Below are positions 5,593 through 64,000 of a DNA stretch of 64,000 nt, piece by piece. The notes beneath the pieces were generated by a model. The model searched no databases, was not told where the DNA came from, and was given only the letters and a program-made list of their open reading frames with translations. Each line of letters starts with the position of its first letter. Position 1 is the stretch's first letter. Origin of the DNA: Nymphaea colorata. Its lineage: Eukaryota; Streptophyta; Magnoliopsida; Nymphaeales; Nymphaeaceae. The stretch spans positions 24,693,716-24,757,715 of the forward strand of contig NC_045144.1 in NCBI RefSeq assembly GCF_008831285.2, written 5' to 3'. The position numbers and the translations under genes are program-made.

Positions 5593-5605
5593 CCCCCCCT
5601 CAAAC

Positions 5606-15692: not shown

Positions 15693-16256
15693 GTATGTAA
15701 GCTTCCTTGTCACTGAAAAAGCACGTTCTCGTGTTTCTTCTTGTTGGTAACATTAGTGTCCACTGTCTTTTGATGTCATTCATTGTTGAATTTCTCCCAA
15801 CTAGTTTTCATATAGGTTTTTAATGTCATTATGTTACTATGTTTTAATTTCACTTTGTTTTTTACTTCTTTTTTTTTATGGAACAGGCGATTGCTTTAGA
15901 GATTACCACAATTATGATGTGCCTATAAATTATTTTTTCCTCCAAAATATTTCACACATTTGATGTAGAAGGTTTGCAGTCATATGGGTTCAAGCTGGAC
16001 TTTAGGCAAGTTCTTGTATGAAAACCTGTATTATAACATTCTTTTTTTCCTTGTACACGTGAAAATCTAATTATGAAGGAAAAGGAAGAAACTGAAGAAA
16101 CATGACAAAGTGACTTAAAGTAGAAGAGACCATATGGAATGCACTAATGATATGTGCCTCATAGAGGGAGTTACTTATGCAAGTTTTTTGTCCATGCAGT
16201 TGATTGCCATTTCTCTTTTCTTAGCTACAAAGTCTTTGCAGAAGGGACTCATCTCC

Positions 16257-24658: not shown

Positions 24659-25257
24659 ATTCTAAAAAATATGTAACGTATATACATATATAATATGTTG
24701 TACTATATATTATTGTGTATATGTTATGTACTGTAATATGTAATGCGTATGTATACTCATAATATTAACATATGTATATTAATATTATATTAATTTGTTA
24801 ACATATATAATATTATATTAAAATATGTATCCATATACACATTATATATCTATACAATATACATGCACATATAATATGTATAACATATATGTATACATAT
24901 AACGTTATATGTATATATCTTATGTCTACATAGTTTAACATATACATATATATGGTAGAAATTCTGGAAAATATGTAACTTATATACATATATAATATGT
25001 TGTACTATATATTATTGTGTATATGTTATGTACTGTAATATGTAATGCATATGTATACTCATAATATTAACATATGTATATTAATATTATATTAATTTGT
25101 TAACATATATAATATTATATTAAAATATATATCCTTATACACATTATATATCCATACAATATACATGCACAAATAATATGTATAACATATATGTATACAT
25201 ATAACGTTATATGTATATATCTTATGTCTACATAGTATAACATATACATATATATGG
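24659..25257. repeat. 302-bp AT-rich tandem duplication
   Basis: Unit 1 starts attctaaaaaatatgtaac at 24659, unit 2 starts attctggaaaatatgtaac at 24961; both run through ataacgttatatgtatatat to near the end and are almost identical. Very AT-rich, non-coding. Confidence 0.9.
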
Positions 25258-25494
25258 TATAATGTAGAATGCAAGTTATAGACTATACATACGTATATTT
25301 ATGTTATATGTTATAGGTGTATAATGTTATATATAATGTGTGTGTGTGTGTATATATATATAGATATATTTATTATTTAAATAGTACATACATGAATACA
25401 TCTACATATTAAAACATATATAGCATATGTACACATGCATATGTAAATTGTGTATATTATGCATAATGATATATGTATATATGTAATATAGTAT

Positions 25495-41232: not shown

Positions 41233-42175
41233 ATAGGCCGCAGTTCACGAAGCTGTTCAGCAGAAATGGAGGCCTTGCATCCACTAGACTTGGTATCCTC
41301 CGACACAGGCATCTTCCCACTAGAAGATCTCGCCCTGTTATCTCGTTTTTCTGGATGAAGATCCCAACGGAAATCCACAGTATGGCCAGCCTTCTTGCAA
41401 TGAGTGCATCTACGAAGAGGTTTGGGAGCACTACCCAGACCAGGACTAACAAGTGCAGATCTCTCATTATAAGGTATGTGATCCCTCTTCCCCCCAGGGG
41501 GGACAAGTCTTCTCTGTTCTTCAGCCTCAACATGGGAGTAGACATCTTCGATACTGAAGGATTCTTCAGAGTTAAGAATCTGACTCCTGATATTTTCAAA
41601 TTCATCATTTAGCCCTACTAAGAGCAGGAATATCCTATTCTCCCATTCTTTTGCAACGTACTGCATCTGGTTGTCATGACAGTGCCAAGTAGCCTCGGAA
41701 TGGTAGTCAAGATCCTCCCATTTGGATTTTAGAGCTGCATAGAAATCTATGACCGAGACATTCCCTTGCCTGAGAGCATACACATCCTTCATCAGTTGAT
41801 ACACACGAACCTTCCTCTTCTTCTGGCCATACATTTCTTCCAACATGATCCACATATCTCTCACAGTCTTCTTACGAAGAATGAGAGATTGAATATCAGA
41901 CGAGACTGAATTAACAATCCAAGTTTTCACTTGGTTGTCCTCAAGAAACCAAGTATCCCAAGCTATATACTGTTCGCAGCAGGTTCAACCTTACTCCCAT
42001 TCACATATGCAATACGGCCTCGACCAGCTATTCCCATGGTGATGGCGGCAGCCCACTTAAGATATTTTTCCTTAGTAAGGCGAATGGTAGTGACCTGAAG
42101 AGGAATACTCTCGGTTCTATAAGCCACAACTTCATTCTAAACAGTGTTGACGGTCGACGAGGAAGAGGCTGCCAT
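41160..42175 (-). pseudogene. Element F gag
   Basis: ATG 42175 starts MAASSSSTVNTV followed by a TAG, then IPLQVTTIRLTKEKYLKW and ITMGIAGRGRIAYV. A frame change leads to the long open stretch 41930-41160: MKTWIVNSVSSDIQ, VYQLMKDVYALRQG, AKEWENRIFLLLVGLNDEF, SIEDVYSHVEAEEQ, and a zinc knuckle CTHCKKAGHTVDFRWD whose last Cys is replaced by Arg. Dead by its stop and frameshift. Confidence 0.88.
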
Positions 42176-42830
42176 AATTGCAGACCTGCCAAGGGGGCAA
42201 AAAGAAACAGCAGCGGCAAAACATGGACAGCAAAAAAGGAAACAAATGGGCCAAAAACAGGCTCCACCACAGCAGAACCAGGGGCTGAACAGAAACAACC
42301 TGCCGTGCGATGGAATAACATCGGGCGAGGCAACCGGTGGCAGCAGAGTTTCCAGGCGATGCAGTCAGGTGGTGGCGGCAGGAACAGAGCACGGAGTGGT
42401 GACGTTAGGCACTGGCAGAGGCGACAGCGGCAGTCTCGGGCGATCCACTTCGAAGGGCGAAGAGAAAAAAATCTCGGGCGCAGAAGGTGCACTGTCGGGC
42501 ACAGCAACCTTCGCCTGAGTCCACCAAAACTTCACAGCAGCAAGCAGGACAAAAACAGAGAGTCACCAGAATAGAGAGACGCCGAAACTCCAGACGGCGT
42601 CGAGTGCGTCGCCAAAACTCCAATAGTGTCGAGTGCATCGCTGGAAGAGACGCCAGAACTCCACGATGTTAGGCGATGACCAACGTCGGGCAGCGAACAG
42701 TAACGACACGTGATTGGAACCGTCCGGCGATGGGCAATGAACAGTACCGGCACAAGTCCTCCTCTCACACGGCCACAACAGAAACAAAAACACGAATCAG
42801 TCACGCCGGAACTTCACGACTCTGATACCA

Positions 42831-43088
42831 TGTAGGAACACGAGGATCAAGAACAAAGGAATACGATGAACACGATGTAACGTGGAAAAACCCTCAGCAA
42901 GAGGAAAAAAAAAACCACAGACGAGGAGGAACTGGCGCCCACTAGCAACCAGACTCTCTCTCTCTTAAGATTTCATTAACAACTCAAAATTAGGGTTACA
43001 ACCCTTAAGTAAGGCCCAACAAGGGCTACACGATGGATCGGGTATGGATCCAAACCCGGTCCTGAAACCCATTTAACATGCTTCAACA
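42831..43088 (-). repeat. 5' LTR of element F
   Basis: 258 bp, ends tgtaggaaca ... gcttcaaca; PBS on the minus strand TGGTATCAGAGT (42819-42830), one mismatch at its last base. Shares gatgtaacgtggaaaa with element D's LTR. Confidence 0.88.
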
Positions 43089-43804
43089 GTACTGTTAAAA
43101 TTTAGAAACAGCAAACTACTTGAAATTCAATGTTGTTGTGCTACTCCTTTTTCTTGCTTAATGTGCTAATCTCATTATTCAAGAAGATAAATGATGTTGA
43201 CAGCTCCGTGTGAGACATATCTTCGAACAGTAATAGCCTGCAGATATTGACTTCCATGGGTTTTCTAGGAGCAAACTTCCTTTGAGGCCTGAAACTTGCT
43301 GTACAATTAGCTTTACCTTGTTAAAGCTTGTCCAATGGCTTGTCTGAATACTGTTAAAGTGATGCTCTAATGAAGCTTGCTTTTACCTCTCCTTGACCAT
43401 ACTTGATTTTCAGGCTAGACCATTGGTTCCACAGATTCTAACCAGTTTTGGAAACTTAAAATGTCTTTTAAGTCAAAACTCCACTAGTAGATGGAACTGT
43501 GTCTTTCAAGTCAGAACTGTACTAGTTGATGGAACTCATTAATTCAAAGTTGATTTGGGTGTCCACAAAAGCTCATCATTAGACGACCCTTTTGAGCTTT
43601 TCTGTGCGGGTGGAAGGACTCTTCTAAGTTATTTGGTTCAGATTCTCAGAATAGTTATAAAAGCTCTGGGACCAAATTGCAATAAAATGTTTTTAATTAT
43701 GTTCTAATTCTTTCTATCAATTAATTTGTGCATTCTCTTTAAAGAAATTTGATTATTCATGCCATGAAGAATATGTGCTAACTTCGTGAAATTTCTTTTC
43801 ATAG
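43089..43804. other. Intron-like DNA before RadA fragment
   Basis: No exon that I can recognise; two words (tcaagtc/ccactagtagatggaact) repeat near 43480 and 43520. Possibly intronic remnant of the RadA copy. Confidence 0.4.
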
Positions 43805-44045
43805 GCCATTTTTTGAATGTTGTTAGCGGTATGAAGTTGACAGAGACAGCTGGGGATCTTGCAATTGCAGCTGCTATTTGCAGTAGGTATGTATTTCTTG
43901 ATCATCTTGTTACGAGCAAAACTCTTGTTACTCTTTCCATGGATGGCACTGAATTCTGATCGAATGATTATTTTCTCATACTGTTTTCTGGAAATGTGCT
44001 GATAGCTTTTTGGAGTTTCTAATACCTAAGAATGTAGCTTTTATC

Positions 44046-44061
44046 GGAGAAGTGGAGAAGT
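44046..44061. repeat. 8-bp tandem duplication in RadA exon
   Basis: ggagaagt twice in a row; removing one unit restores the family motif GEVGLGG in frame. Confidence 0.9.
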
Positions 44062-45033
44062 TGGTCTTGGTGGCAAGCTTCGAACGGTATGTGATTAGAA
44101 AATTGTGTACATTATAATTGCATCCTTTTTCTTTTTGTCATTTAAATGACAATGAAAAATGGTTTTCATTTTAACATACATAACATGTTACCCTTAAAAA
44201 CATTATTAAAAATATTTCAAACATTGTTTAAGATTATGATTGAGAATGTTGAATGCATGTCGAATGATCGTTAGCACTGTGTTGACATGTACTGTGCGAA
44301 CAGCAACCTCCTCCATCTGTTCTCTAGAAAGGTTTTACGATCAAAGTTTTTGGATGTCCACTATTCTGTATCAATCTGTTCTTTTCGGATGATATCATCT
44401 GACAATCAGTATATGAATACCTTGATAACATCAATGAACTTGGCCAAGGGAATCTGTTCATAGTAAAGAGATTTCTAACGCATGGCTACCATGCCAATCC
44501 TAACCTGTTTGCCCCTCTTTTTGTGCTTAAGATATGAGGTGCATTCCTCTCTTAACAGTTAACATTGAACACATGTCCACGGTCCTTAGCCTTCTGATTG
44601 GTTCCAGCTATCTTTTGATGCTTGGCATCATGACTTAGTAGATTGCATACATTACTTCAACGTTGAAAATATCAATGCATCTCATTTATATCTAAAATGC
44701 TGATTTTTTGTAAAATCCTTTCAAGTGTTTGAGCTGTTTGTCCATTTATTACTTTCTCTAGTTCTTTTGTTTTTTAGAAATTAACGTGAATTTTATGTGA
44801 GCAATCGACTAGATCTCTTGCTTGTATTTGCTTCAGCTTTTCTGAGGTCTGCATGTAGATTTAACCTCTCATACTTGCAGTGCACGGCTAAGTGTGCTGT
44901 GCTTGGATGATGTCATGTTTTAAGTTAGCCAAATATTCATGCTACTTGATAATGCAAGGACAATTTGGATATTTCAGGTTGCAAGAATGGATAAGAGGCT
45001 TAACGAACTTATTAAGTTGCGCAATTTAAGAAT

Positions 45034-45130
45034 TGCGTTATTCCAAAAGTGGCAGAGAAGTTGTTCAAAGCCATTGACAAAGTGCGTTATTCTAAAAGTG
45101 GCAGAGAAGTCGTTCAAAGCCATTGACACA
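45034..45130. repeat. 49-bp tandem duplication in RadA exon
   Basis: tgcgttattc(c/t)aaaagtgg at 45034 and 45083; the duplicated stretch codes for VIPKVAEKLFKAID-like residues and changes the frame. Confidence 0.9.
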
Positions 45131-45199
45131 AGCGGGATAACCACAGTGACTTGTAGCAATCTGAAAGAGGTTCTGAACAAAGTATTTCGGACAGATTAA

Positions 45200-45897
45200 G
45201 TCCTCCTTTGCACAACTTCCCTCGACGCCTTTGGTGCAGTGTTGTACATAACAACTAAGGTTGCAAATGGGCCAATGTTATGAAAGGGCTTCACCATTTG
45301 CTTTATTTTGGTGGGATGTTCATAAAATTTATGGATACAAATGGATCGGATGTTATGGAGGAGCCTCACCATTTACCATTTATTAAATGAATTCAACCAT
45401 TCTTACTGTACTTGGCCGATCCATATTCAACCCGGTTTCTTTCGTACCATCCTGCACTCGATAGCTTTCTTCTGAATGAACGGACTAATACAGACACAGT
45501 TTGCTTCCCCTTGATCGTAACTTTTTTTTTTTTAACATTCTGCAAAATATGAGAAACTGCCAAATATCTTTAATTTTGAGTTGCCATGAGAGACGCGATC
45601 ACTGATATCTGAAATGGATTAAAGTTCAATCAGCGGGCAAACGAAAACTGGCTCCCATTGGCTCACGATCTTTGTAATGGTAATCATTAAAAGGCTGCAA
45701 CTTTAATACGTTTCCTTGAATGTTAGCTGGTACTTCAAGTTCAAGCTAAAACGTGCGTGGACTCCTACGATTTGCGAAGGAGTTTTCACAAAGACACTTT
45801 AATGAAATTATTTTATAAAATAACTCTCAATTAACATAATTGAGAGCTCGCGGGAGCTAGGTTGGTTCGCAAAACTATCGAAATCTCTTGATCCGAA
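45200..45897. other. Non-coding interval between RadA and PFK pseudogenes
   Basis: Convergent 3' flanks of the RadA (+) and PFK (-) pseudogenes. No further feature seen. Confidence 0.5.
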
Positions 45898-47251
45898 TTA
45901 TGACGTCGCCGAGAAATTGCCGTCCTCACTCAAGGCCTTCCCGTCTGCCAAGAACATTTGTAGATCTTGAATGCTCGACTCTCGCTTACTCTTGGCTTCT
46001 TCAATGTCCTCTGGGCTGAGGAAGGTAGGTTGGTTCGCATAGGAAAGCAACCTCGCCCACATACGGTCGGTTATACAGACTTGATTCTGCTTCTCAGTCA
46101 CACGCTGCAAGATCAGGACAATAAAAGCCAGAAATGAGATTCGAATAAATTTCAAACCGAAAAGGAAATTTGACACATTAGACAATCGTGGTGTTTTTCA
46201 GTCACGGAGGAACTTACATAGATAGGTAAGCATGCCTGCCGTTAACAGGACCGACAGTGAAGCCCAAGTATCCAGCCATGGCGCCATGGACAGCACTATG
46301 AACGAGAAGCGTGCAATAGACGTTGTCTGAAGCATTGCTAGGAATGGCACGAATCATGTACGTGGGATCTGCAGACAAATGCCATCGTTCAAATTTAGTC
46401 TTCTAGATCAATCTTTTGTTTGCATCCAAAGTTGCTTTACTCACATACCTATGTATGTGAGGTTCATTACAATCTTTTCCTTGGCAAAGTGGTCCTGCAA
46501 TTCAAAGGAAGACGAGTTTTTTATGGACCTCAAAGACTATTCAACATTGTCACTTACAAGCACTCTGCGTAGGCCTTATCCTCCAGTTGTAATACCTTGA
46601 TGAAATTTAAAGCATACCACATCTCTGCTAGCCAACGTAGAGTACATAGCAATAAATCCTGCAGCATCAAATGTATGACGGAATTAATAATCAGATAGAG
46701 AAATTCATTTCATGAATTGAACCCACTTCAAAAGAGGGGTTGCATTCTTACGGAGAGAATTCAGACATCTCAAAGAAGGCTCCAACTTCCTATTCGACAG
46801 CTACAAAACAATTTGATCTTAGAAAAACTGCACCAAAAGGCCCGGTGGAGTTGCGGCAGTGAGGTGAATTATGAACCTCTTAGAGTTCAAGTTGTATGAA
46901 CTACACCGCACTTCAATTCAAAGAAAACCTGAACATGAATAAACCAACAGCATACCAGCCCCTCAGCTTGACAAGGCCCACACCATTTTCGCCACTTTCA
47001 GCTTCAGACATGCGCTGCGTTAATAGCCCTTTGAGCCTCTTCAACTGCAGTATCAGAAACCAAATGATTTGTCGATAACCTGAAACAAAGGACACACAAG
47101 AGCCATGTAGCATAAGGATCTACTTGGCTGATATCTCCAATGGAATAAAGACTGCTTCAATGCCAAGTTGCAAGCATATTACCGCAATCTCATTATCAAT
47201 AGTCTTTGGAATTCCGACAACTGAAACTTTAAGACCACGCCTTTCAATCTC
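45898..47251 (-). pseudogene. PFK: ATP-dependent 6-phosphofructokinase pseudogene (3' exons)
   Basis: Plant ATP-PFK (glycolysis, fructose-6-phosphate to the bisphosphate), minus strand, introns kept. Exons: 47251-47183 ([20 protein letters not shown], conserved substrate-site region); 47079-46956 (VIDKSFGF...AVEEAQRAINAAHV...GENGVGLVKL); 46658-46618 (GFIAMYSTLASRDV); 46494-46449 (DHFAKEKIVMNLTYI); 46368-46218 ([33 protein letters not shown]); 46104-45898 ([20 protein letters not shown], normal stop). Lesions: two one-base insertions in the second exon, a lost exon end, a missing CCLIPE-region exon, and a small deletion at the fifth exon end. The 5' half is absent. Confidence 0.94.
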
Positions 47252-49012: not shown

Positions 49013-50378
49013 CTACAAAGAAAAATATCACAAAATGAAACACGTTTCAAGCAAAATTCTCTTTCTTTGCTTTACGATTATTTTATGAGTTCGCATTTTT
49101 TTTTTAAGCTGAACTGTTCTTCTGGGGGCCGTTTGATGGCTGGAAATATGAAAACGGAAAAAAAATTCCAGAAATAAATTTCTGGAATTGAGGAATAAGA
49201 AATAAAATTCCATATTTTCAAAACCAGCTTGTGTTTGTTAAGTTGGAAATATTTTTCTGGAAAGAAATTTCTTCGTTTGATGGAAATGGTGGAAATGATG
49301 AGGAAACACAGGGAAAAGGGTAGTTAAGGCTCAAGATAAGCATTTACACATCGCATCAAATCTCTCTCTGTAAACAAGCTCAAGACACCTCCACATTTTT
49401 TTTCTGGAAACGATTATGGCAAAAGATTAAAACGAATATGGAAATCAAAAGCGTGCTGTTCAACATAAATAAAGCCCCAGGTTTTGTCTAATACCTCCAG
49501 TGGCATCAGCGCTGTGGCCTGTGGGGGATCACTGTGTACAGAGAAGAGGGAACATAAGACAAGGGGAAGAAGGGAAGAAAGAGCAAGAAGAAGAAGAAGA
49601 AGAAGAGAACAGCATAATTTGTACACAACATTTGCAACAGAGGAAGAAAGCAGAGAACATCATTTGTAGTGCAAAATTTGTGAAATCCAGGCATTCTCAC
49701 AGCCCATCAATCCTGCACTTCCTCCACCATAAACCGATCACATCCAAATCAACAAACAAAATTCAGGCATTCTCAAAGAAAGTAGATAAAAAAAACTATG
49801 TTGATCATAGAACACAAATAGCCGACCACCGAATCCAGAAAATCAAAAAATCCCCAATTTTCACGACAAACAGCCCGTTCGCAAAGAGAAACCCTAGAAA
49901 TATCTACCGGATCGACCTCACCACCGAATAAATTTTTAGAGAAAAAAAAAACAAAAAAACTTTTTTCTCAACCATCCTCCTCGGCAGAGGAAGAGGAAAA
50001 CGATCGACTGTCGACCGATCCACACCAATTCACGCAAAGAAGAGAACTACAGGAGAAGGAGACGGGCAAAACATGAACGAAATACCTTGCTTGGATGCCC
50101 TAGCCTCCGAAAAAGGGAGGTGATTTTCTCTACTTGCTCTTCATCATCTTCTTCGCCTCCACATTCGTCATTGCTTTCCTCCTGACGAAGTGGCTGTCTG
50201 ATTAGCCCCTTTATTCTTCTTATTTGTTTCCCATTTTTGGACCCTCCCTGTCCCTGGTCTACCATCCATCCCTTCAGCATAGATGTCCTCCGGTGAGAAG
50301 CATTTTCTGGCCATGACCGACCCACAGAGGGCAAGAGGCTTTCGTGTGCAGGCAGGAGGGAGCGATGAGCGTGCCCTA
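49013..50378. other. Interval with unrecognised minus-strand open frame
   Basis: Contains a ttctggaa/ttccagaa-rich stretch (49130-49290) that resembles a hAT-type MITE, GA-rich text at 49560-49610, and a minus-strand open frame (about 50386-50080) including QEESNDECGGEEDDEEQVEK that ends at a possible donor (AAG|gtattt at about 50085). I do not recognise a family; it may be an exon of another captured gene. Confidence 0.4.
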
Positions 50379-50564
50379 ACGGGCAAAAAACAAATTTCCA
50401 GAAAGTTTCCACCTCTCGTGGTGGAAACATTTTTTTGGAAAAAAATTTCAAAATTTCAAAATATTTCCGGTTTATCAAACGCGCGAAATCGGAAATTTTT
50501 TTCCCGAAAAATGTTTCCACGCGAGAGGTGAAAACATGTTTCTGGAAATTTTTTTTTTGCCCGT
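50379..50564. mobile_element. MITE-like element with terminal inverted repeats
   Basis: 186 bp. Left end acgggcaaaaaacaaatttc, right end (inverted) acgggcaaaaaaaaaatttc; the inverted similarity extends about 60 bp on each side including ccacctctcg. No matching target duplication. It adjoins the patatin fragment exactly where homology to the plus-strand copy at 16.4 kb ends, and an 11-bp tandem repeat (tttgggaata) lies next to it at 50565-50586. Confidence 0.7.
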
Positions 50565-50586
50565 TTTGGGAATACTTTGGGAATAT

Positions 50587-51474
50587 TTTGTGCAAAGCCA
50601 TATTGCAATTTTGCATTTCAATCGCAACTTTGAAAAGCATTAGTGCCAAAGGTGGATTGCAGAGCGTCCTCCATGGTGTTTCCGGATACAATAACTGCAC
50701 ACACTATAGCCCCGAAAGATGAACCAGCTAACAGAGTGTTCTCCTGCAGAGATAACCCTAGTTGAGACAAGATCGGATTATGGAGGGGGAAGAAAAAAAA
50801 AGAAAGAAAGAAGTTCATTATTTAATCGAAGCAAGCACTTCCGAGAACTTATGCAGAATTTGTTCTCAACAAATCATCCGACCAAGAAATCCGTCAGCAC
50901 TCAATTTGTCGAAGACACGAAAGAAATTCAGACCTACGAAGATAAAACTAGGCGGAATTCCCATTTACAATGGGTGCTTTTCCTTGAAAACGGCTAAATT
51001 TTTGACGTTCTCACCAAAGTATCAAATTGCGAGGCAATCAGAAAAGCACACGGTTGGGTCTAAGCATGAGTCAGAACACAGAGAATCACGGCATCAAGAT
51101 CACAGATATAATCCAATTGCAGTTGCACACGACAAAAGCAACACAGAGCGATAAACTCTTTCCCTCTTCATTACCCGAATGTACCCCTTCTCCAGGACAA
51201 TCTGCGTGACGCCGAGATGGTAAGGAAACGAAAGCCCCGCAGCGGAGAAGCTGAAGCCGGGGCTCGTAATCTTCGACCGCTCCCTCTCCGCTTCGACGTC
51301 CTTCTCCCTCTGCTCCCAGAAGACGGCGGACTCCGCCTCACCAACGATCATGGCAGCCACACCAACTCGATCGCCCTCCTCGGAACCTCCGCCCGAACGC
51401 CGCGTCCTCAGGAGCGAGGATGCGAGGCCCATGAAGAAATCGCCAGTAGCGACGACGAACGACCGACTGGGCAA
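50587..51474 (-). pseudogene. Patatin-like phospholipase, first two exons
   Basis: Plant patatin-like lipid acyl hydrolase. Exon 1 (51474, or ATG 51432, to 51175): SAVFWEQREKDVEAERERSK, then SPGFSFSAAGLSFPYHLGV and LEKGYIR, the oxyanion-hole region; donor gtaatg. Exon 2 starts 50743 after ctctgcag: ENTLLAGSSFGAIVCAVIVS with the GxSxG nucleophile elbow (GSSFG), then GNTMEDALQ and a stop at about 50618. Reading frame and splice phase fit between the exons. The catalytic Asp (DGG/DGA) and all later exons are missing, replaced by a MITE and other DNA, so at most a truncated product is possible. Confidence 0.85.
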
Positions 51475-51526
51475 CTAGTCCCGTGCCTTCTCCTGCACCG
51501 TGGCGAATAATCTGAGGGCTTCTTGG

Positions 51527-51916
51527 TAAGGGTGGGCATCGGGCCGGCCCGGCCCGATAAAGAACCGTCGGGAACGGCCCGACGGGCCGCTGGGTCGGGC
51601 CCGGGCCCGGCCCGGATATTTAACGGGTCGGGCCGGGCCGGGCCCGGATTAAAATAATATTATTTTTAATTTATAAAATATTTTTTAAAAATAAAATAGT
51701 ATTTATTAATGATAAATATATAATATTAAAATTAAAAAAATTAAAAAAATATATTTTAATTTTTAACGGGTCGGGCCGGGGCTGACTCGGGCCGACATAT
51801 CAGGCCCGGACCCCGTTAACAGTTTTTCCCGGGCCCGACCCAGCCAACTTTTTCCAGGCCCGAGGCGGGCCGGGTACCGGGTACCCGGCGGTGGCCCGGC
51901 CCGGTGCCCACCCTTA
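51527..51916. mobile_element. hAT-type MITE
   Basis: 390 bp with terminal inverted repeats taagggtgggca...cgggccgg and a perfect 8-bp target duplication cttcttgg (51519-51526 and 51917-51924), the hAT signature. GC-rich arms made of gggccggcccgg-type words surround an AT-rich core (51650-51765). It lies just upstream of the patatin exon 1 ATG. Confidence 0.93.
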
Positions 51917-52393
51917 CTTCTTGGTAGTCGGCAGAAGGAGGGAGTGTTGGCGAAAGGCGCCTTGGAAGCTTCGAGTTGAAGAAATCTCGTCGCTTGGTCA
52001 CATTCTCCTTCTGTTTTGTGTTCTCTATTTTATCATTGTGGAGGAACGCCGTGTGTAATTTGTATCGTAGAGATCCAGGGGAAAACTTGAACGAGGAGGA
52101 AATGGCTCCAGTTATATGGACCCGAAACGAAGTTTACGTCCATAAAATTGGTGTTAATTTCATAAATGGGTCATACATTTTCGAAAATGTTGTGAACGCT
52201 TACTTTTTTTTTTCTAAAAGCAACGTAACTTTTATACATCATGAAGATATTGGGATGGACAGCTATGTCTCGCTCTCTTCTAGTGGTGTAGGCACATTAT
52301 TGCCCATACCAGCCTCTTAAAAGTTTTTTATTTTTAAATAGAAATATTAAATATTTATTCTTAGATATATATAAGTGATCTACAAGATTTAAG

Positions 52394-52394
<1 letters not shown>

Positions 52395-52481
<87 letters not shown>
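52395..52481. repeat. (TA)n microsatellite
   Basis: About 87 bp of uninterrupted TA. Confidence 0.97.
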
Positions 52482-52485
<4 letters not shown>

Positions 52486-52628
52486 GTATATACAGTATAT
52501 TTGTGAACGCCGATCGATTTGTCGGTGGAAGAAAACGGAAGAAAAAGAAAGAAGAAAAATGAAAGGAGGTAAGAAAGTCCGATGGAGGGAGAGAAAAAGT
52601 GTTCGCTCTGTGTTAAGCGTCTCCATAA

Positions 52629-52780
52629 GCTGATTATTAAACAATTTCTCACAACACGTTGTGACAGAGGTGCAAATGATGATTATTAGACCGTTTCACA
52701 TGACACGTTGTAACAAAGGTGAAAGTGAGTTGTTATACCACTTCGCACAACACATTGTGACATAGGTGAAAATGATGACA
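52629..52780. repeat. Three imperfect 50-bp tandem repeats with a palindrome
   Basis: Units start near 52629, 52680 and 52730; each contains a version of cacaacacgttgtgacagag followed by gtgaaaatgatga-like text. The core acaacacgttgt is near-palindromic. Confidence 0.8.
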
Positions 52781-53845
52781 TATGAACAACACTTTCGATG
52801 ATATTTTGAAGTTCAAACCATTGTTACATATAATTGCGAAATTTTAAAAAATAAAAAGAAAAATGTGCAAAATTTGTTTTGTTACTGAAAATATATTTGT
52901 GGGGTTGTTATTGCATTTTGTTCATGTTTTCTTGTTTTCTCCTTTTTTACTTGCATGTCATCATGAATTCAAATTTAAAATTAGAAAAGGTTTTTTATCA
53001 TCATTTTAATCATCGTCAAAACATTATTTGGATCATTTTATCTTGTTTTAGTGTTTTTTTATTAATTTTTATCATTTATTTTACTTTTACCAAATTTCAA
53101 TTTTTATTTTTCCAAATAAAAATAAATTCTACGAAAGATATCATAAACAACTCCTTAGCACTTGGTGCCCACTATCACACACCAATCTGTAATTTGTAAA
53201 CCAAATTCCATCGCGATCTTGAAAACCACCCTAATTCCATCGGCCCAAGCCACAATACATATTTTGCATGTAGATGAAACCTCTTTTCAATAATATGTCA
53301 CTAATATGCGATACAGCTAGCCGCCATACTTTCACAGCACTAGAAACATGGTTTACATATAAACAAAAAAATATGCAAAATTATCAGTTGTCTTTTATAA
53401 ACAATACATATATTTCACTATAATATCCTACGACATATGTTCTACTGCCTCAAGGCTTACTCCCGCCTCATTGCTTTTAACAATATTGATCTAAGTTTTC
53501 CTTGTTGCACACATTAAAATTGTCTCACACACACACACCTGCTTATGAAGATATGCACGTGATGTCGCACTGCACCCATATAATGCATTTCTCCTTCATT
53601 GTCCGAAGATTGAACCAAATTTAATGGTGCCATGCACTTTATAGGGATTAGTGTTATTGGTGCTTTAAATATGCTATATATTCCTTCTCGACTGGATAGA
53701 TGTTTGTCGATGAACTTCGATGACACGACCAGTGCACCACGGAAAGCGAATTTGATCCCATAGCGCATCGCCTTGTTTTCTACAGGCAAGCATTCGCAAG
53801 CAAGTGGTTGTTATAAATGTACCTTAAGCTACGGTTTTCAGTGAC

Positions 53846-53876
<31 letters not shown>

Positions 53877-55339
53877 TCCAAATGCAATGATATGACTGGA
53901 TTGTGAGGCTTGCTTAGACTTGGTGGAATCCCCCTACTTACATGAAACTATATATATTTTGTTCCAAAGCAAATTGTGTTCCCCCTTATAAAGGAAGAAA
54001 AAAAAAAAGTTGTGGCTATAGTGGATAATCTCATTTTAAAACTTAGGTTTTGTACCTAGCTTCAAATTAAAATTCAATTTTTGCAAGAATACCCTTTGAT
54101 TTTGACTTCAAACAATCTCTCTCTTGAGTGTGTTCGGTTTGACTTGAGCTCATTGGGGTTTTGACCTAGTGGTCTAATTTTAAATTATAATGAGTTACAG
54201 ATTTTTCCATCTATAAATTCAATAATCAAACTTAACTTACACAGATTTAAAAGCCATTGTGTTAAATTAAATTGGAAAGAACTTTTTTGTCCAAAATTTG
54301 ATTGAAAATGGGGTTGACTTGATCAAAACCCTCGAATCTATATTGTTCAATTGCATACTTGGCTCAGACAATTTATGAGTTCAATTACATAATTGAATTG
54401 TATAAAACCCTAATTTAGAATTTTATTGATTGAATTGGGCTGAGAATGGCAATTTTGTTCCAAAATTGAATTGACTGTATGGTTTGACCATGATCGACAT
54501 CCCATTTATGTTTTAACTTCCACAAATTTGACAAGTCTAATAGCATTTGATACTCAAAAACATTTAATTATGTTTTAACTATGTTAAATTTTGAAATGAG
54601 CTTCAATTGAGCCTAGTCAAGGCATTGTTGGTTCAGTCAAGGATTAATTATGTCCTGTAACTGGATTGGTCAATGGGTACAAACCTGGCCTGTTTGACTG
54701 GGTTCATGTTTGACACAAACTAGTAGATGGGGCAGCACATCACAGTGAGCCTGGTTCAAACCCACTTGAAATTAAGTGGGTTTGAGACATGCTCATTATG
54801 ACGTGTAAATGAGGTCAATGCATGCTGGGCTCTTTAAAGCATGTCTTGATTATTCAAATCTTCCCATTTTTCATGTTAGTTTTGCTTTCTTATTTTTTTA
54901 GATTTTTCAATTATTTTAATCTCTTAGGTCAAAAGGAACCCTTTTTAATTGATTTTAATGAAAGTACGCCCCCCCCCCCAACACCCTGCCTTGGGTGGGC
55001 CACCCTTGCACATGTAGGCCAGCTAGGGCCTACATGTGAGTTCCACCTGGTGTTCTAAGTCCATACCATAAATTTGAATTTCGATTTCAAATGACAATTG
55101 TCATTGGTTTTGAGTTAGAACCTTCATTTTCATAGTTTATGCACCTTAAGGTCTAAGGCTCACTGCTCATGATTTTTCAAAAGAATGATGCACATTTGCA
55201 AAGCCGTTTGCAACTTCAGTCAATGGTATATAGGTGAAAGGAGAATTCGGTTTTGGGTGGATATGAACACCCCCCATTTCTCTCACCTAAAGAAAGATCC
55301 ATGTTTGATTACTCTGCCCAATTATCATTGAAGGATGTT

Positions 55340-58143
55340 TATTGAACCACTAAGTCATTCCATACGTATGTAACAACAAGTTAAGCATATTCAATTAAAT
55401 ATAAGTGGTCAAATGAATCACTTAATCTCCCAATTAAATATAAGTGATCAAATATATATAAACAAGTGAAAAACATTAGATTAACTATAATGGATCAAAT
55501 GAATTACTTGAATCTCATTCATTTTCATACAAACTTGTGATTTCAATTCACCAAATCTATCAATATGGATGTGACAACAAAGTAAGCACACTCAATTAAG
55601 CATGCGTGATCATATGAATCACTTAAATCTCACTCATATTGATACAAACTTGTAATTTCAATCTCTTAGATCGTTCAATATAGATGCAACAGCAAGTTCA
55701 ACTCGTTGGACAAATTACAATGGATCGAAGTAATGCATTGATCTCATTTATATCCATATAAACTTGTGATTTTAATCATTTAAATCATTCACTATAGGCG
55801 TAATAACAAATGAAACACATTAGATTAACTATAAGAGATCAAATGAATAAATTGGATCTCATTCATTTTCATACAAACTTGTGATTTCAATCCCTAAATC
55901 ATTCGATATGAATTTGATAACAAGCTAAGCACACTTAATTAATTATGCGTGATCAAATGAATCACTTAAATCTTACTTGCATTGACACAAACTTGTGATT
56001 TCAATCCTTTAAATCGTTCACTATAAATGCGACAAGTTCAACTCATTGAACTAACTACAAGGGATAAAAGTAATGCATTGATCTCATTTGTCTCCATACG
56101 AACTTGTGATTTCGATCAATGAAATCCTTCATTATAGATGTAATAACAAGCGAAACACATTAGGTTAACTATATAGCAAAAGATGAATCACTCGAATCTC
56201 ATTCATTTTTTTACAAAGTTGTGATTTCAATGCACTAATTCATTCAATATGGATATAACAACAAGTTAGGCACATTCAATTAAGTATGCGTAATCAAATG
56301 AATAACTTAAACACCACTCACTATAAATGTAACTATAAACTAATGTGTAGATCTCATTTATATCCATATAAACTTCTTATTTTAATAATCTAAATCATTC
56401 ATTATAGATATAATAACAAGTGAAATACATTAGATAAACTATAACATATTAAATGAATTACTTGAATCTAATTTATTTTCATACAAACTTATGCTTTCAA
56501 TCCACTAAATCATTCAATATGGATGTAACAACAAGTCAAGCACATTTAATTACAAATGTGTGATCAAATGAATCACTTAAATAATTAATATTGGTACAAA
56601 CTTGTGATTTCAATTCTTTAGTTCGTTCACTATAAATGTAACGTTAAGTTCAACTTATTGGACTAACAGTAAGGGATCAAAGTAATGCATAGATCTCATT
56701 TTTATCCATATAAACTTGTGATTTCAATAATTTAAAATCGTTCAATATAAATGTAATAACAAGTGAAACACATTAGGTTAATTATAAGACACCAAATCAA
56801 TCACTCGAATCTCATTCATTTTCATACAAACTTATGATTTCAATTTACTAAGTCGATCAATATAGATGTGACAACAATTTAAGTACATTCAATTAAGTAT
56901 GTGTGATCATATGAATCACCTAAATCGCACTAGTATTGATACGAACTTGTGATTTCAATCTTTTAGATCGTTCACTATAGATGTAACAACAAATTCATTT
57001 CATCGGACTAACTACACGTGTTCAAAGTAATGCATAGATCTCATTTGTATACATATGAACTTGTGATTTCAATCATTCATTATATATATAATAACAAGTG
57101 AAATACATTAGATTAATTAAAAGGGACCAATTGAATGACTTGACTCTCATTCATTTCCAAACGAATTTCTTATTCTAAACCACTAAGTCATTCCATACGT
57201 AGTAACAACAAATTAAGCACATTCAATTAAATATAAGTGATCAAATGAATCACTTAATCTCTCAATTTAATATAAGTGATCAAATATATGTAATCACAAG
57301 TGAAAAACATTAGATTAACTATAATGGATCAAATGAATTACTTGAATCTCTTTCATTTTCACACAAACTTATGACTTCAATTCACTAAATCGACCAATAT
57401 GGATGTAACAAGAAGTTAAGCACACTCAATTAAGCATGTGTGATCATATGAATCACTTAAATCCCACTCGTATTGATACAAACTTGTAATTTCAATTTCT
57501 TAGATCATTCACTATAGATGCTACAACAAAGTTCAACTCATTGGATAAACTATAAATGATCAAAGTAATGCAGAGATCCCATTTATATCCATATAAACTT
57601 GTGATTTTAATAATTTAAGTCATTCATTATACACATAATTACAAATGAAACACATTAGATTAAATACAAGAGATCAAATGAATAAAATGAATCTCATTTA
57701 TTTTCATACGAACTTGTGATTTCAATCTCTAAATCATTCAATATGGATGTGACAACAAGTTAAGCACATTTAATTAATTATGCATGATGAAATGAATCAC
57801 TTAAATCTTACTCGCATTGATACGAACTAGTGATTTCAATCCTTTAAATCGTTCACTATAAATGTGACAAGTTCAACTCATTGGACTAACTACAAGGGAT
57901 AAAAGTAACACATTAATCACATTTGTCTCCATATGAACTTGTGATTTCGATCATTGAAATCTTTCATTATAGATGTAATAATAAACGAAACACATTAGGT
58001 TAACTATAGGGGAAAAGATGAATCACTCGAATCTCATTCAATTTCCTACAAAGTTGTGATTTCAATACACTAATTCATTCAATATGGATGTAACAACAAG
58101 TTAGGTACATTCAATTAAGTATGCGTAATCAAATGAATAACTT
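55340..58143 (+). repeat. Satellite array, segment 1 (forward)
   Basis: Monomers of about 113 bp sharing acttgtgatttcaatc and aacaacaagt boxes, in three types told apart by gaaacacattagattaac, aagcacattcaattaa and ttcaactcattggac. They follow one another in fixed order as a trimer of about 336-344 bp (e.g. third-type box at 55697, 56037; 57534, 57870). A longer unit starting aaccactaagtcattccata repeats at 55345 and 57178 (1,833 bp). Non-coding, AT-rich. Confidence 0.93.
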
Positions 58144-58767
58144 TACTTGTTGTTACATCTATAATGAATGATTGAAATCACAAGTTCATATGGATACAAA
58201 TGTGATTTATGCATTACTTTGAACACGTGTAGTTAGTCCGATGAGTTGAATTTGTTGTGACAAGTATAGTGAATGATGTAAAGGATTAAAATCACAAGTT
58301 CGTACCAATACAAGTGAGATTTAAGTGATTCATATGATAATGCATACTTAATTGAATGTGTTTAACTTATAGTCACGTCTATATTAAAAGATTTAGCATA
58401 TTGAAATCACAAGTTTGTATGAAAATGAATGAGATTCGAGTCATTCATTTGGTGTCTTATAGTTAACTTAATGTGTTTATCTTGTTATTACATTTATAAT
58501 GAACGATTTAAATGATTGAAATCACAAGTTCATATGGGTACAAATGAGATCTACGCATTAGTTTGATCCCTTGTAATTAGTCTAATGAGTTGGACTTGTA
58601 GTTACTTCTATAATGAATGATCTAAGAGATTGATATGACAAGCTCGTATCAATATGAATGAGATTTAATTGATTCATTTGATGACACATATTTAATTGAA
58701 TGTGCTTAACTTGTTGTTACATCTACATTCAATGATTTAGTGGATAGAAATCACAAGTTTGTATGAA
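58144..58767 (-). repeat. Satellite array, segment 2 (inverted)
   Basis: The same monomers in reverse orientation (boxes read gattgaaatcacaagttcat). Its first 430 bp are the inverted copy of about 56680-57110, sharing the diagnostic variant acacgtgttcaaagtaatgc. Confidence 0.9.
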
Positions 58768-60720
58768 TGTAACAATAAGTCAAGCACATTCAATTAAATA
58801 TGTGTGATCAAAAGAATCACTTAAATCCCACTCATGTTGATAGGAACATGTGATTTCGATCCCTTAAACCGTTCAATGTAGATGTAGCAAGAAGTTAAAC
58901 TCGTTGGATTAAATACAAGAGATCAAACAAATGCATTGATTCCATTTGTATCCATATAAACTTGTGATTTCAACGATTCAAATCATTTATTATGATTGTA
59001 ATAATAAGTAAAACATATTATTTTTACAATAAGACATCAAATGAATGACTTTAATATCATTCATTTTCATACAAAGTTGTGATTTCAATCCACTAAATCG
59101 TTCAATATGTATGTAATAACAAATTGAGCACATTCAATTAAGTGTGTGTGATCAAATGAATCAATTTGATCCCACTTTTATTAATACAAACATGTGATTT
59201 TAATCCCTTAGATCATTCATTATATATGTAACAACAAGTTCAACTGTTTGGATTAACTACAAGGGATCAAACTAATGTATAGATCCCATTTGTATACATA
59301 TGAACTCGTGATTTCAATCATTTAAATCATTCATTATAGATGTAATAACAAGTGAGACACATTAGATTAAATATAACTGAGCAATTGAATCATTTGAATT
59401 TCATTCATTTTCATTTAAACTTGTGATTTCAATCCACTAAATCATTCAATATGGATGTAACAACAAGTCAAGCACATTCAATTAAATCCACTAAATCATT
59501 CAACTATGTGAGATCAATTGAATCTCTTAAATCCTACTCCAACTGATATGAATTTGTGATTTCAATCCCCTAGCTATAGATGTCACGACAAATTCAACTC
59601 ATTATATTAAATACAAGAGATTAAACAAATGCATTAATCCCTTTTGTATCCATATAAACTTGTGATTTCAATGATTTAAATCATTCATTATGATTGTGAT
59701 AATAAGTAAAACACATTATTTTTACTATAAGGTATCAAATGAATTACTTGAATATCATTCATTTTCAAACAAACTTGTGATTTCAATACACTCGTTCAAT
59801 ATGGTTGTAACAATAAATTGAGCACATTCAATTAAGTGTGTGTGATCAAATGAATCAATTTGATCCTACTTTTATTAATACAAGTCTGTTATTTCAATCC
59901 CTTAGATCATTAATTATAGATGTAACATCAAGTTCAACTGATGGGATTAACTACAAGGGATCAAATAAATGCATAGATCCCATTTGTATACATATGAACT
60001 TGTGATTTCAATAATTTAAATAATTCATTATAGATGTGAAAAGAAGTGAGACACATTAGATTAAATATAAGTGAGCAAATGAATCACTTGAATTTCATTA
60101 ATTTTCATTTAAACTTGTGATTTCAATCCACTAAATCATTCAATATGGATGTAACAACAAGTAAAGCACATTCAATTAAATATGTGTGATCAAAAGAATC
60201 ACTTAAATCCCACTCGTGTTGATAGGAACATGTGATTTTGATCCCTTAAATCGTTCACTATAGATGTAGCAAGAAGTTAAACTCGTTGGGTTAAATACAA
60301 TGGATCAAACAAATTCATTGATAATAACAAGTAAAACACATTATTTTTGCATCAAATGAATTCTTTGAATATAATTCATTTTCAAACAAACTTGTCATTT
60401 CAATCCACTAAATCATTCAATATGGTTGTAACAATAAATTGAGCACATTCAATTAAGTGTGTGTGATCAAATGAATCAATTTGATGCTACTTTTATTAAT
60501 ACAAGCATGTGATTTCAATCCCTTAGATCATTCATTATAGATGTAACAACAAGTTCAACTAATTGTCAAACTAATGCATAGATCCCATTTGTATACATAT
60601 GAACTTGTGATTTCAATCATTTAAATCCTTCATTATAAATGTAATAAGAAGTGAGACACATAAGATTAAATATAAGTGAGCAAATGAATCACTCAAATTC
60701 CATTCATTTTCATTTAAACT
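58768..60720 (+). repeat. Satellite array, segment 3 (forward)
   Basis: Forward monomers again, with variants not seen in segment 1 (gagcacattcaattaagtgt at 59126, 59819 and 60440; aggaacatgtgattt at 58852 and 60224), indicating its own higher-order periods of about 620-710 bp and about 1.38 kb. Confidence 0.9.
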
Positions 60721-63700
60721 AAAATCAGAAGTTTATATGAATATAAATGAGATGTATACATTAGCTTATAGTTACGTCTATAGTGAACGATCTAAGGGAT
60801 TGAAATAACAAGTTCGTAACAATACGAGTAGTATTTAAGTTATTCATTTGATTACGCACGCTTAATTGAATGTGCCTAACTTCTTGTTACATCCATATTG
60901 AATGAATTAGTGTATTAAAATCACAATTTTGTAAGAAAATGAATGAGATTCGAGTGATTCATTTTTTGCCCTTTAGTTAACCTAATGTGTTTTGCTTGTC
61001 ATTACATCTATAATGAAGGATTTCAATGATCGAAATCACAAGTTCGTATGGAGACAAATGCGAACAATAAATTACTTTTATCCCTTGTGGTCACTACAAG
61101 GAGTTGAACTTGTCACATTTATAGTGAACGATTTAAATGATTAAAATCACAAGATCATGCATAATCAATTAAATTTGCTTAACTTGTTGTCACATTTATA
61201 GTGAACGATTTAAAGGATTGAAATCACAAGATCATGCATAATCAATTAAATTTGCTTAACTTGTTGTCCAATCCATATTGAATGATTTGGGAATTGAAAT
61301 TACAAGTTCGTATGAAAATAATGATATTCAATTTATTCATTTGATCTCTTATAGTTAATCTAAGGCGTTTCATTTGCTATTATGTCTATAATGAATGATT
61401 AAAATCACAAGTTTATATGGATAAAAATGGGATCTATGCATTATTTTGATCCCTTGTAGTTTGTCTAATGAGTTGAGTTTGTTGTTACATTTAAAGTAAA
61501 GATCTAAACAATTGAATTCACAAGTTCGTAACAATGTTAATGATTTAAGAGATTCATTTGATGACGCATTTACAATTAAATGTGCCTACCTTTTTGTTAC
61601 ATTCATATTGAATGATTTAGTGGATGGAAATCATAAGCTTGTATGAAAATAAATTAGATTCAAGTAATTCATTTATTATGTTATAGTTTATATAATGTAT
61701 TTCACTTGTTATTACTTTAATAATGAATAATTTAAATGATTAAAATCAGAAGTTCATATTTATATAAATGAGATTTATACATTACTTTATAGTTACATCT
61801 ATATTGAACGATCTAAGGGATTGAAATAACAAGGTCGTAACAATATGAGTGGTATTTAAGTTATTCATTTGATTACGCATGATTAATTTAATGTGCCTAA
61901 CTTGTTGTTACATCCATATTGAATGAATTAGTGTATTGAAATCACAATTTTGTAAGAAAATGAATGAGATTTGAGTGATTCATCTTTTGCCCTGTAGTTA
62001 ACCTAATGTGTTTTGCCTGTTATTACATCTATAATGAATGATTTCAATTATCAAAAGCACAAGTTCGTATGGAGACAAATGGACAAATCATTACTTTTAT
62101 CCCTTGTGTTCACTACAAGGAGTTGAACTTGTAACATTTATAGTGAACGATTTAAGGTATTGAAATCACAAGTTCGTATCAATGCGAGCAAGATTTAAGT
62201 GATTCATTTGATAATGCATAATCAATTAAACGTGCTCAACTTGTTGCCACATCCATATTGAATGATTTGGGAATTGGAATCACAAGTTGAAAGTAAATGA
62301 GATTCAATTTATTGATTTGATCTCTTATAGTTAATCTAATGTGTTTCATTTGATATTACGTCCATAATGAATGATTTAAACATTTAAAATCACAAGTTTA
62401 TATGGATAAAAATGGGATCTATGTATTACTTTGATCACCTGTAGTTTGTCTAGTGAGTTGAGTTTGTTGTTACATCTATAGTAACGATCTAATAAATTGA
62501 ATTCACAAGTTCATAACAATGTTAATGATTTAAGAGATTCATTTAATGATGCATTTAAAATTAAATGTGCCTAACTTATTGTTACAAACATATTGAATGA
62601 TTTAGTGGATGAAAATCATAAGCTTGTATGAAAATAAATTAGATTCAAGTAATTCATTTATTATGTTATAGTTTATATAATGTATTTCACATGTTATTAC
62701 TTTTATAATGAATGATTTAAATAATTAAAATCAGAAGTTTATATGGATATAAATGAGATTTATACATTAGTTTACAGTTACATCTATATTGAACGATCTA
62801 AGGGATTGAAATAACAAGTTCGTAACAATACGAGTGGTGTTTAAGTTATTCATTTGATTACGCATGCTTAATTTAATGTGCTTAACTTGTTGTTACATCC
62901 ATATTGAATGAATTAGTGTATTGAAATCACAATTTTGTAAGAAAATGAATGAGATTCGAGTGATTCACCTTTTGCCCTGTAGTTAACCTAATGTGTTTTG
63001 TTAGTTATTACATCTATAATGACGGATTTCAATGATCGAAATCACAAGTTCATATGGAGACAAATGGGAACAATGCATTACTCAACTCCTTGTGGTCACT
63101 ACAAGGAGTTGAACTTGTCACATTTATTGTGAACGATTTAAAGGATTGAAATCACAAGTTCGTATCAATGCGTGCAAGATTTAAGTGATTCATTTGATCA
63201 TGCATAATCAATTAAATGTTCTTAATTTGTAGTCACATCCATATTGAATGATTTGGGAATTGAAATCAAAAGTTCGTATGAAAATAAATGAGATTCAATT
63301 TATTCATTTGATCTCTTATAGTTAATCTAATGCGTTTCATTTGCTATTACGTCTATAATGAATGATTTAACCGATTAAAATCACAAGTTTATATGGATAA
63401 AAATAGGATCTATGCATTACTTTGATCCCTTGTAGTTTGTCTAATGAGTTGAGTTTGTTGTTACATCTATAGTAACGATTTAAACAATTGTTATTACTTT
63501 AATAATGAATAATTTAAATGATTAAAATCAGAAGTTCATATTTATATAAATGAGATTTATACATTACTTTATAGTTACATCTATATTGAACGATCTAAGG
63601 GATTGAAATAACAAGGTCGTAACAATACGAGTGGTATTTAAGTTATTCATTTGATTACGCATCCTTAATTTAATGTGCCTAACTTGTTGTTACATCCATA

Positions 63701-64000
63701 TTGAATGAATTAGTGTATTGAAATCACAATTTTGTAAGAAAATAAATGAGATTCGAGTGATTCACCTTTTGCCCTGTAGTTAACCTAATGTGTTTTGCTT
63801 GTTATTACATCTATAATGAAGGATTTCAATGATCGAAAGCACAAGTTCGTATGGAGACAAATGGACAATGCATTACTTTTATCCCTTGTGTTCACTACAA
63901 GGAGTTAAACTTGTAACATTTATAGTGAACGATTTAAAGTATTGAAATCACAAGTTCGTATCAATGCGAGCAAGATTTAAGTGATTCATTTGATAATGCA
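60721..64000 (-). repeat. Satellite array, segment 4 (inverted, runs off the window)
   Basis: Reverse monomers to the window end. aaaatcagaagtt marks repeat starts at about 60721, 61742, 62728 and 63523, giving units of about 1021, 986 and 795 bp. A 77-bp tandem duplication lies at 61114-61267. A hairpin motif ccttgt(g)gtcactacaagg recurs at about 61084, 62102, 63088 and 63883. Confidence 0.92.

What the first reader, a model, noticed from the sequence alone, without database searches (positions are those of the whole stretch)
55340..64000. Trimeric higher-order satellite array with repeated orientation switches
About 8.7 kb of AT-rich satellite is built from ~113-bp monomers of three types in fixed order, i.e. 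a true higher-order repeat of about 340 bp. Orientation switches near 58143, 58767 and 60720. Higher-order organisation plus frequent inversion is typical of centromeric or pericentromeric arrays and could mark a lineage-specific centromere satellite.
Basis: partly seen in the sequence, partly recalled or inferred. Interest (0 to 1): 0.75.

Follow-up and report, generated by a model that had tools for sequence, protein, structure and literature searches.

The report
Water-lily satellite with layered higher-order repeats
The window ends at the worn edge of a large satellite-DNA array, very probably of the water lily Nymphaea colorata; the satellite recurs on most chromosomes in nested repeat units, some of which regularly flip direction, and is probably, though not proven, part of the (peri)centromeres.

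Summary
In detail: from window 55,344 to the end lies a satellite of ~115-bp monomers of three types in cyclic order, with orientation switches near 58.14, 58.76 and 60.7 kb. The window holds only its edge; the array runs on to C7:24,835,876 (two scaffold gaps) and resumes at 24.858-24.866 Mb. The ~340-bp trimer is an old level (third neighbours ~76-80% identical); the homogenised unit beyond the window is a 9-mer of ~986 bp (up to 98%). The window's switches separate layers of different subfamilies. The genome is very probably Nymphaea colorata. The satellite was read on 13 of 14 chromosomes (C1 only six monomers; none found on C10). Units are head-to-tail on C5 and most of C7; on C3, C4, C6, C8, C9 and C12 the ~1.2-2.1 kb unit itself contains inversions. 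Such inverted-unit satellites are known from flour beetles; my paper searches showed none in plants. A (peri)centromeric place is likely but unproven: no CENH3 or FISH data, several blocks per pseudochromosome, C7 blocks near both ends of a Hi-C draft.

The parts
55344..58143 (+). Outer stratum of the satellite array, 25 monomers of ~115 bp, types mostly in cyclic order with missing members (8- and 16-monomer periods); 20 of 24 monomers compared are closest to arrays on C15 (mean best identity 0.92)
58110..58761 (-). Inverted block of about 5-6 monomers between two orientation switches; the inversion also lies inside a 98.7% identical copy at C7:0.276-0.280 Mb
58762..60712 (+). Mixed stratum, 18 monomers, lag-3/6/12 identity 0.80/0.89/0.91, no single nearest subfamily (16 monomers compared, 7 groups)
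60761..64000 (-). Beginning of the C7 9-mer higher-order repeat (~986 bp), which runs on beyond the window
54000..55340 (+). Flank of the array; 9 copies of at least 93% identity were scored, 7 on C7 (this one included) and one each on unplaced C182 and C778; for 6 of them the junction with the satellite was read
54000..55129 (.). Dispersed repeat inside the flank, with partial copies of 64-96% identity elsewhere in the genome

Best explanation
This is the left edge of a (peri)centromere-type satellite array on chromosome 7, very probably of Nymphaea colorata. A ~115-bp monomer diversified into three types that became an ordered trimer; trimers were amplified into longer higher-order repeats (9-mer and 18-mer on C7, 18-mer on C5, 6-mer on C11, units of 11-19 monomers containing inversions on C3, C4, C6 and C8 and ~1.2-kb units of that kind on C9 and C12), each spread by unequal exchange or amplification along or between particular chromosomes. 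New units expand inside an array and leave older, diverged layers at its edge; in this window the three orientation switches separate such layers. Shown: monomer types, order, nested units, higher neighbour identity in the core than at the edges, strata, genome-wide spread, two groups of units. Inferred: the mechanism of amplification, the relative age of layers, and that these arrays carry or flank kinetochore chromatin.
For: Lag-9 identity along the C7 block is 0.91 (stretch that begins in the window), 0.95, 0.98, 0.92 (only 17 monomers), 0.96, 0.87 and 0.76, while lag-3 stays at 0.76-0.78. Window strata differ by nearest subfamily: 20 of 24 monomers of the first stretch are nearest C15, 25 of 26 of the last nearest the C7 core. 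The type order exceeds all 500 shuffles in 17 of the 19 loci tested outside the core that defined the types. A 9-mer marker has 24 genome hits, 22 on C7 and 2 on an unplaced contig. The window part is AT-rich, has no ORF of 60 aa or more and no Rfam match. Satellite was read in fetched loci of C2-C9 and C11-C14. Species: an N. colorata chr3 SSR primer (PMC9601493) has a single genome match, on C3.
Against: C10 gave no hit in any listing that reaches it (exact patterns only) and of C1 I read only a 6-monomer piece. C2 (5 of 36 pairs ordered, shuffles up to 6) and C13 (13 of 26, shuffles up to 14) do not show the order. The last C7 stretch (lag-9 0.76) does not exceed its shuffles (0.769). Blocks lie at several sites of one pseudochromosome (C3: 6.0, 14.2, 29.1 Mb) and near both ends of C7, which a single centromere would not give unless the draft scaffolds are wrong. 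C5 and one C7 block share an 18-mer at 93% and C7 also has three group II marker hits, so units are not strictly chromosome-specific. No CENH3, FISH or methylation data were available.
Confidence: 0.68

Rival explanations
1. A heterochromatic but non-centromeric satellite (subtelomeric or interstitial knobs), as for many plant satellites; the nested units arise by the same amplification but carry no kinetochore role.
For: On C7 most blocks lie at 0.24-1.35 Mb and 24.75-24.87 Mb of 25.52 Mb; C2 has one at 33.8 of 36.3 Mb and C12 one at 0.09 Mb; several blocks per chromosome. The N. minuta assembly paper names another tandem repeat, Cen-42, for its centromeres (PMC13254204, passages seen).
Against: Other chromosomes have blocks well inside (C8 12.4 of 25.1 Mb, C12 14.4 of 23.0 Mb, C9 10.8 of 25.2 Mb). 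Fourteen samples of 4-6 kb from C7:24.88 Mb to its end hold no satellite. The assembly is a Hi-C draft of 1,429 contigs (PMC7015852) with 100-N joins inside this very array.
Confidence: 0.25
2. The edge with its inversions is part of a mobile or duplicated block (a large transposon or segmental duplication) rather than a centromere edge. (Not exclusive of the best explanation.)
For: The flank exists in 9 copies of at least 93% identity, six of them read across the junction besides the window, and an unplaced contig matches as far out as window 41.6 kb.
Against: All placed copies scored are on C7 (7 of 7), the other two on unplaced contigs, which fits local duplication or uncollapsed haplotypes; no flank copy at that identity was scored beside the arrays of other chromosomes (40 of 69 candidates scored). 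Ends of a mobile unit were not searched for.
Confidence: 0.12
3. The multi-site and inverted arrangement is largely an assembly artefact (mis-joined or palindromic long-read contigs). (Partly compatible with the best explanation.)
For: Two 100-N joins within the C7 array, one at an orientation switch; near-mirror blocks at C7:1.316/1.353 Mb and C5:20.616/20.679 Mb.
Against: The window has no N; the first two switches recur inside another copy; units containing inversions recur on six chromosomes, neighbours 91-99% alike by TRF on C3, C4 and C6.
Confidence: 0.1

Closest known systems
Primate alpha satellite (chromosome-specific HORs, suprachromosomal families, layered edges); comparison from recall
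   Same: Nested monomer types and multi-monomer HORs shared by sets of chromosomes; homogenised core with diverged layers and inversions at the edge
   Different: ~115-bp monomer, trimeric ancestor, no CENP-B box in the window; one group of HOR units contains inversions; centromere function untested
Soybean CentGm-4 chromosome-specific HORs (PMC11447526, passages seen)
   Same: Plant satellite with HOR forms that differ by chromosome
   Different: CentGm-4 HORs are described there as monomers to tetramers and the terms inversion, inverted and orientation do not occur in the text; here units reach 9-19 monomers and some are bidirectional
Switchgrass HORs with truncated monomers (PMC4053949, passages seen)
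   Same: Long HOR units that include a shortened monomer, like the 81-bp step of the C7 9-mer
   Different: Unrelated repeat length (175 and 166 bp); 'inverted' does not occur in that text
Cuscuta europaea CUS-TR24 (PMC8091179, passages seen)
   Same: Plant satellite arrays with neighbouring arrays in the opposite orientation (10-15% of neighbourhoods), so switches between arrays as such are not new in plants
   Different: Switching lies between arrays, not described as built into a repeating HOR unit
Tribolium satellites with inverted subunits and macro-dyads (TmSat2 of T. madens, T. brevicornis 1061-bp satellite; PMC13081366, 12 of 26 passages seen)
   Same: A ~110-bp progenitor builds longer units whose subunits face both ways and could fold into long hairpins; probable (peri)centromeric place
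   Different: Insect; no sequence comparison made; here one group of chromosomes has inverted units while another is head-to-tail
N. minuta centromeric tandem repeat Cen-42 (PMC13254204, passages seen)
   Same: Same genus, proposed centromeric repeat
   Different: Its sequence is not in the passages seen, so it could not be compared; neither 'satellite' nor 'monomer' occurs in that main text

Membership tests
Higher-order-repeat satellite | Distinct monomer types in fixed order | tested here: met
   not met at the C2 and C13 loci
Higher-order-repeat satellite | Multimer units much more alike than the monomers within them | tested here: met
   C7 core: lag-9 identity up to 0.98 against 0.64-0.65 for neighbours
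Centromeric satellite | Present on every chromosome | tested here: inconclusive
   read in loci of C2-C9 and C11-C14, a 6-monomer piece on C1, no hit on C10; exact patterns only, several listings truncated
Centromeric satellite | One compact region per chromosome at the primary constriction | tested here: inconclusive
   several blocks on C3, C4, C5, C7 and C8 in a gapped Hi-C draft
Centromeric satellite | Bound by CENH3 | not testable with these tools
   needs ChIP or CUT&Tag
Centromeric satellite | CENP-B box (primate type; not required in plants, recalled) | tested here: not met
   0 matches in the window, 0.09 expected by chance
Centromeric satellite | Accompanied by centromeric retrotransposons (CRM) | not tested
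   not searched for; the six window ORFs scanned point to Copia-type elements
Satellite with inverted subunits (Tribolium-like) | Repeat unit contains monomers of both orientations, recurring unit after unit | tested here: met
   C3, C4, C6, C8, C9 and C12; not in the C5 and C7 loci read; C11 has one 87-bp reversed piece in each of its first two 663-bp units
Satellite with inverted subunits (Tribolium-like) | Unit could fold into a long hairpin | tested here: met
   predicted DNA folding z -12 to -22 in 4 of 4 stretches against -1 to -4 in 3 of 3 head-to-tail ones, 10 shuffles each; prediction only
Subtelomeric satellite | Next to telomeric repeats | tested here: inconclusive
   no tandem telomere repeat in the loci held, among them the first 2 kb and last 6 kb of C7; other chromosome ends examined only in their first 2 kb, two of them all N

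The most novel reading that the evidence does not exclude
An early-diverging flowering plant has two coexisting architectures of one centromeric satellite: head-to-tail HORs on some chromosomes and, on at least six others, a family of bidirectional HORs whose ~1.2-2.1 kb unit itself is an inverted repeat able to fold into a long hairpin. That would be the flour-beetle dyad principle arisen independently in plants and a natural test of whether satellite orientation matters for CENH3 loading.
Probability: 0.4. Interest if true: 0.8.

Novelty: new variant of a known kind. Interest (0 to 1): 0.58.

Why it matters
Water lilies are one of the first branches of flowering plants, and in the papers found here their centromere DNA is described only through tandem repeats 'like Cen-42' in N. 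minuta (PMC13254204, passages). A satellite with HOR forms that differ between chromosome groups gives markers for N. colorata chromosomes and lets array ageing be read from edge to core. The bidirectional group allows a within-species comparison of head-to-tail and inverted-unit arrays, a point raised for Tribolium, where a 2026 paper states that macro-dyads formed by satellite arrays are documented only in that genus (PMC13081366, passages).

Tried and rejected
A 3-cluster cut of all 775 monomers of the C7 block by average linkage gave only two groups (that script then stopped on an error); I attribute this to truncated monomers and redid it with the 67 full-length window monomers and with the core's nine consensus monomers.

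A CENP-B box was sought and not found. Structured RNA (window 50,000-64,000) and coding content of the array were tested and rejected. The idea that the window's inversions are relics of the bidirectional family was not supported: group II is never the nearest subfamily among the 72 window monomers compared. Centromeric retrotransposons (CRM) were not searched for. Pfam: 6 of the 16 window ORFs of 150 aa or more were scanned, 5 of 6 with a match above the curated cut-off, the matches pointing to Copia-type elements. Paper searches for N. colorata centromere satellites and for inverted HORs (one search returned no paper at all) showed no plant counterpart in their listings; of the listed papers I saw passages of PMC13254204, PMC7015852, PMC9601493, PMC13081366, PMC4053949, PMC8091179, PMC11447526 and PMC12692304 and no whole text; the library is open-access only. 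A 37-mer and a 33-mer chosen to map later contigs gave only 1 and 5 hits.

Limits: reference subfamilies include L008 (C15), which was fetched because it resembled the window, so nearness to C15 may be inflated; the C7 core reference is the same array. Pattern listings stop at about 100 places, so C12-C16 and the unplaced contigs are under-described. Ten shuffles per stretch give rough z-scores, and for C8 only a 1,200-base slice of its 2,068-bp unit was folded. Type labels come from the C7 core, so L012, which lies in that core, is not an independent test. One of 13 published primer pairs, and of it one primer, was used for the species.

Full report
What was checked. The window is C7:24,693,716-24,757,715 of a 407.8-Mb assembly of 783 contigs; C7 is 25.5 Mb long. 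Order is beyond chance: 62 of 76 neighbouring pairs follow one cycle against a maximum of 41 in 2,000 shuffles. In the first stretch (55,344-58,143) the cycle has gaps: lag-3 identity (0.76) does not exceed the shuffles (0.779) and the strong lags are 8 and 16 monomers.

Which organism. The forward primer of SSR locus Ny-3.2, N. colorata chromosome 3 (PMC9601493, passages seen), has exactly one match in the genome, on C3. Only this primer was tried, and that paper tested its markers in nine waterlilies, so the primer alone does not exclude a relative. The published N. colorata assembly is 409 Mb, 1,429 contigs, 14 pseudochromosomes scaffolded with Hi-C (PMC7015852, passages seen); N. minuta is given as 382 Mb (PMC13254204). 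From the SSR densities, chromosomes 1 and 2 come to about 43.1 and 35.0 Mb, against 44.0 and 36.3 Mb for C1 and C2. I take the genome to be N. colorata; C15 (7.3 Mb) and C16 (1.3 Mb) would then be unplaced scaffolds.

What lies beyond the window. Reading on along C7, satellite runs from 24,749,059 to 24,835,876 (775 monomers), with a 2.4-kb non-satellite insert at 24,783,251-24,785,693 and two 100-N gaps. It is present again at 24.858-24.866 Mb; 14 samples from 24.88 Mb to the contig end and two at 24.60 and 24.65 Mb hold none.

Nested units. Along the C7 block neighbouring monomers are 0.64-0.69 identical and third neighbours 0.76-0.80. Ninth neighbours, in the stretches from the one that begins in the window to the far end, are 0.91, 0.95, 0.98, 0.92 (17 monomers only), 0.96, 0.87 and 0.76 identical; the last does not exceed its shuffles. 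So the ~340-bp trimer is a less alike, presumably older level and the homogenised unit is a 9-mer of ~986 bp, one of whose spacings is only 81 bp. In the window, the first stretch is nearest C15 arrays (20 of 24 monomers), the short inverted block is mixed (3 of 6 nearest C15), 58,762-60,712 is mixed (16 monomers over seven groups), and the stretch after 60,761 is the C7 9-mer (25 of 26). The second and third switches clearly coincide with a change of subfamily; the first separates two stretches that are both nearest C15. A copy at C7:0.276-0.280 Mb aligns without break over window 55,835-59,487 at 98.7%, so the first two switches are not local assembly errors. The flank of the array exists in nine scored copies of at least 93%, seven on C7 and one on each of two unplaced contigs (40 of 69 candidates scored); seven edges compared with the satellite included are 96.7-99.5% alike.

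Across the genome. One 20-mer has 776 exact hits, its reversed control none. Of 19 loci tested outside the core that defined the types, 17 show the order above every one of 500 shuffles; C2 and C13 do not. Two groups of units appear. Group I is head-to-tail in the loci read: C7 (9-mer, ~986 bp; 18-mer, 1,973 bp, lag-18 identity 1.00), C5 (18-mer, 0.95), C15 (weaker periods). C11 (6-mer, 663 bp, 0.82) belongs here but has one 87-bp reversed piece in each of its first two units. The C5 and C7 18-mers are 93% alike, while the 9-mer marker has 22 of 24 hits on C7 and 2 on an unplaced contig. Group II units contain blocks of both orientations: about six or seven monomers one way and four or five the other on C3 (1,185 bp; TRF 99% over 3.4 copies), C4 (1,211 bp, 91%), C6 (1,210 bp, 94%), C9 and C12 (~1.2 kb); four alternating blocks in a 2,029-bp unit on C4; blocks of 8 and 11 in a 2,068-bp unit on C8 (lag-19 identity 0.92). 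Group II loci of different chromosomes are 88-93% alike and 71-78% like the group I loci compared. The C14 locus has both orientations without a clear unit. A group II marker has 389 exact copies; the 100 listed lie on C3 (28), C4 (29), C6 (3), C7 (3, at 5.24 Mb), C8 (19), C9 (3) and C12 (15), and the listing stops there. So C7 carries both groups.

Folding. Single stretches of group II are predicted to fold far better than shuffled sequence (z -12 to -22, four of four) and contain long self-inverted matches; three group I stretches do not (z -1 to -4, no inverted match). This is a prediction from ten shuffles each, not evidence that hairpins form.

Interpretation. The anatomy (nested HORs, homogenised core, diverged inverted edge, sharing by chromosome sets) is what unequal exchange and repeated amplification inside (peri)centromeric arrays produce (established knowledge, recalled). 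I judge a (peri)centromeric place likely at about 0.68. Against it: positions on C7 near both ends, several blocks on C3, C4, C5 and C8, no hit on C10. The gaps within the array and the draft scaffolding make misplacement a real possibility, but that is not shown.

What is new. HOR satellites that differ by chromosome are known in plants (soybean CentGm-4, PMC11447526, passages seen), and oppositely oriented neighbouring arrays too (Cuscuta, PMC8091179, passages seen). Long inverted subunits within satellite units are known in Tribolium, whose authors call such long dyads uncommon and array-level macro-dyads so far documented only in that genus (PMC13081366, passages seen). I found no report of HOR units with built-in inversion in a plant in the listings (one search returned nothing), nor of this satellite in N. 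colorata; the library is incomplete, so this is not proof of absence.

Noticed in passing
window 5119-10328: Copia-type retroelement on the minus strand (ORFs 5606-7477 and 7709-9715) flanked by direct repeats 99% identical over 300 bp, 4,910 bp apart: probably a recent insertion.
   Followed up: partly
window 837-2106 and 12699-13937; 2213-2846 and 15372-16003: Further direct repeats (87-97% identical) spaced about 11.86 and 13.16 kb, bracketing the Copia element: probably an older element with nested insertions.
   Followed up: no
window 24656-25259: 302-bp unit duplicated in tandem, 97% matches.
   Followed up: no
L011 5750-8190 (C7:24783251-24785693): 2.4-kb non-satellite insert in the otherwise regular array, unidentified.
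   Followed up: no
C7:1316206-1317544 (+) and 1352742-1354081 (-); C5:20.616-20.633 (-) and 20.669-20.679 (+) Mb: Mirror-image pairs of array edges or markers, outer members about 36-62 kb apart: large palindromes or palindromic assembly artefacts.
   Followed up: no
C1:34.96 Mb; C2 left end: 56-base telomere pattern has 5,815 hits on one strand and none on the other; one run is interstitial on C1 (listing truncated). It hints at scaffold orientation or joining problems.
   Followed up: no
L032 (C182:1-2000) against window 41613-46124: The unplaced contig C182 is collinear with the window far outside the satellite, with deletions: segmental duplication or an uncollapsed haplotype.
   Followed up: no
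L055 (C2:33795001-33799000): Satellite block without type order, mostly one monomer type, mean identity 0.77 to C7 monomers: a possible old monomeric relic.
   Followed up: partly
L062 (C11:19688001-19692000), 670-756 and 1333-1419: One reversed 87-bp piece per 663-bp unit in the first two units of an otherwise head-to-tail 6-mer: a possible intermediate between the two groups.
   Followed up: no
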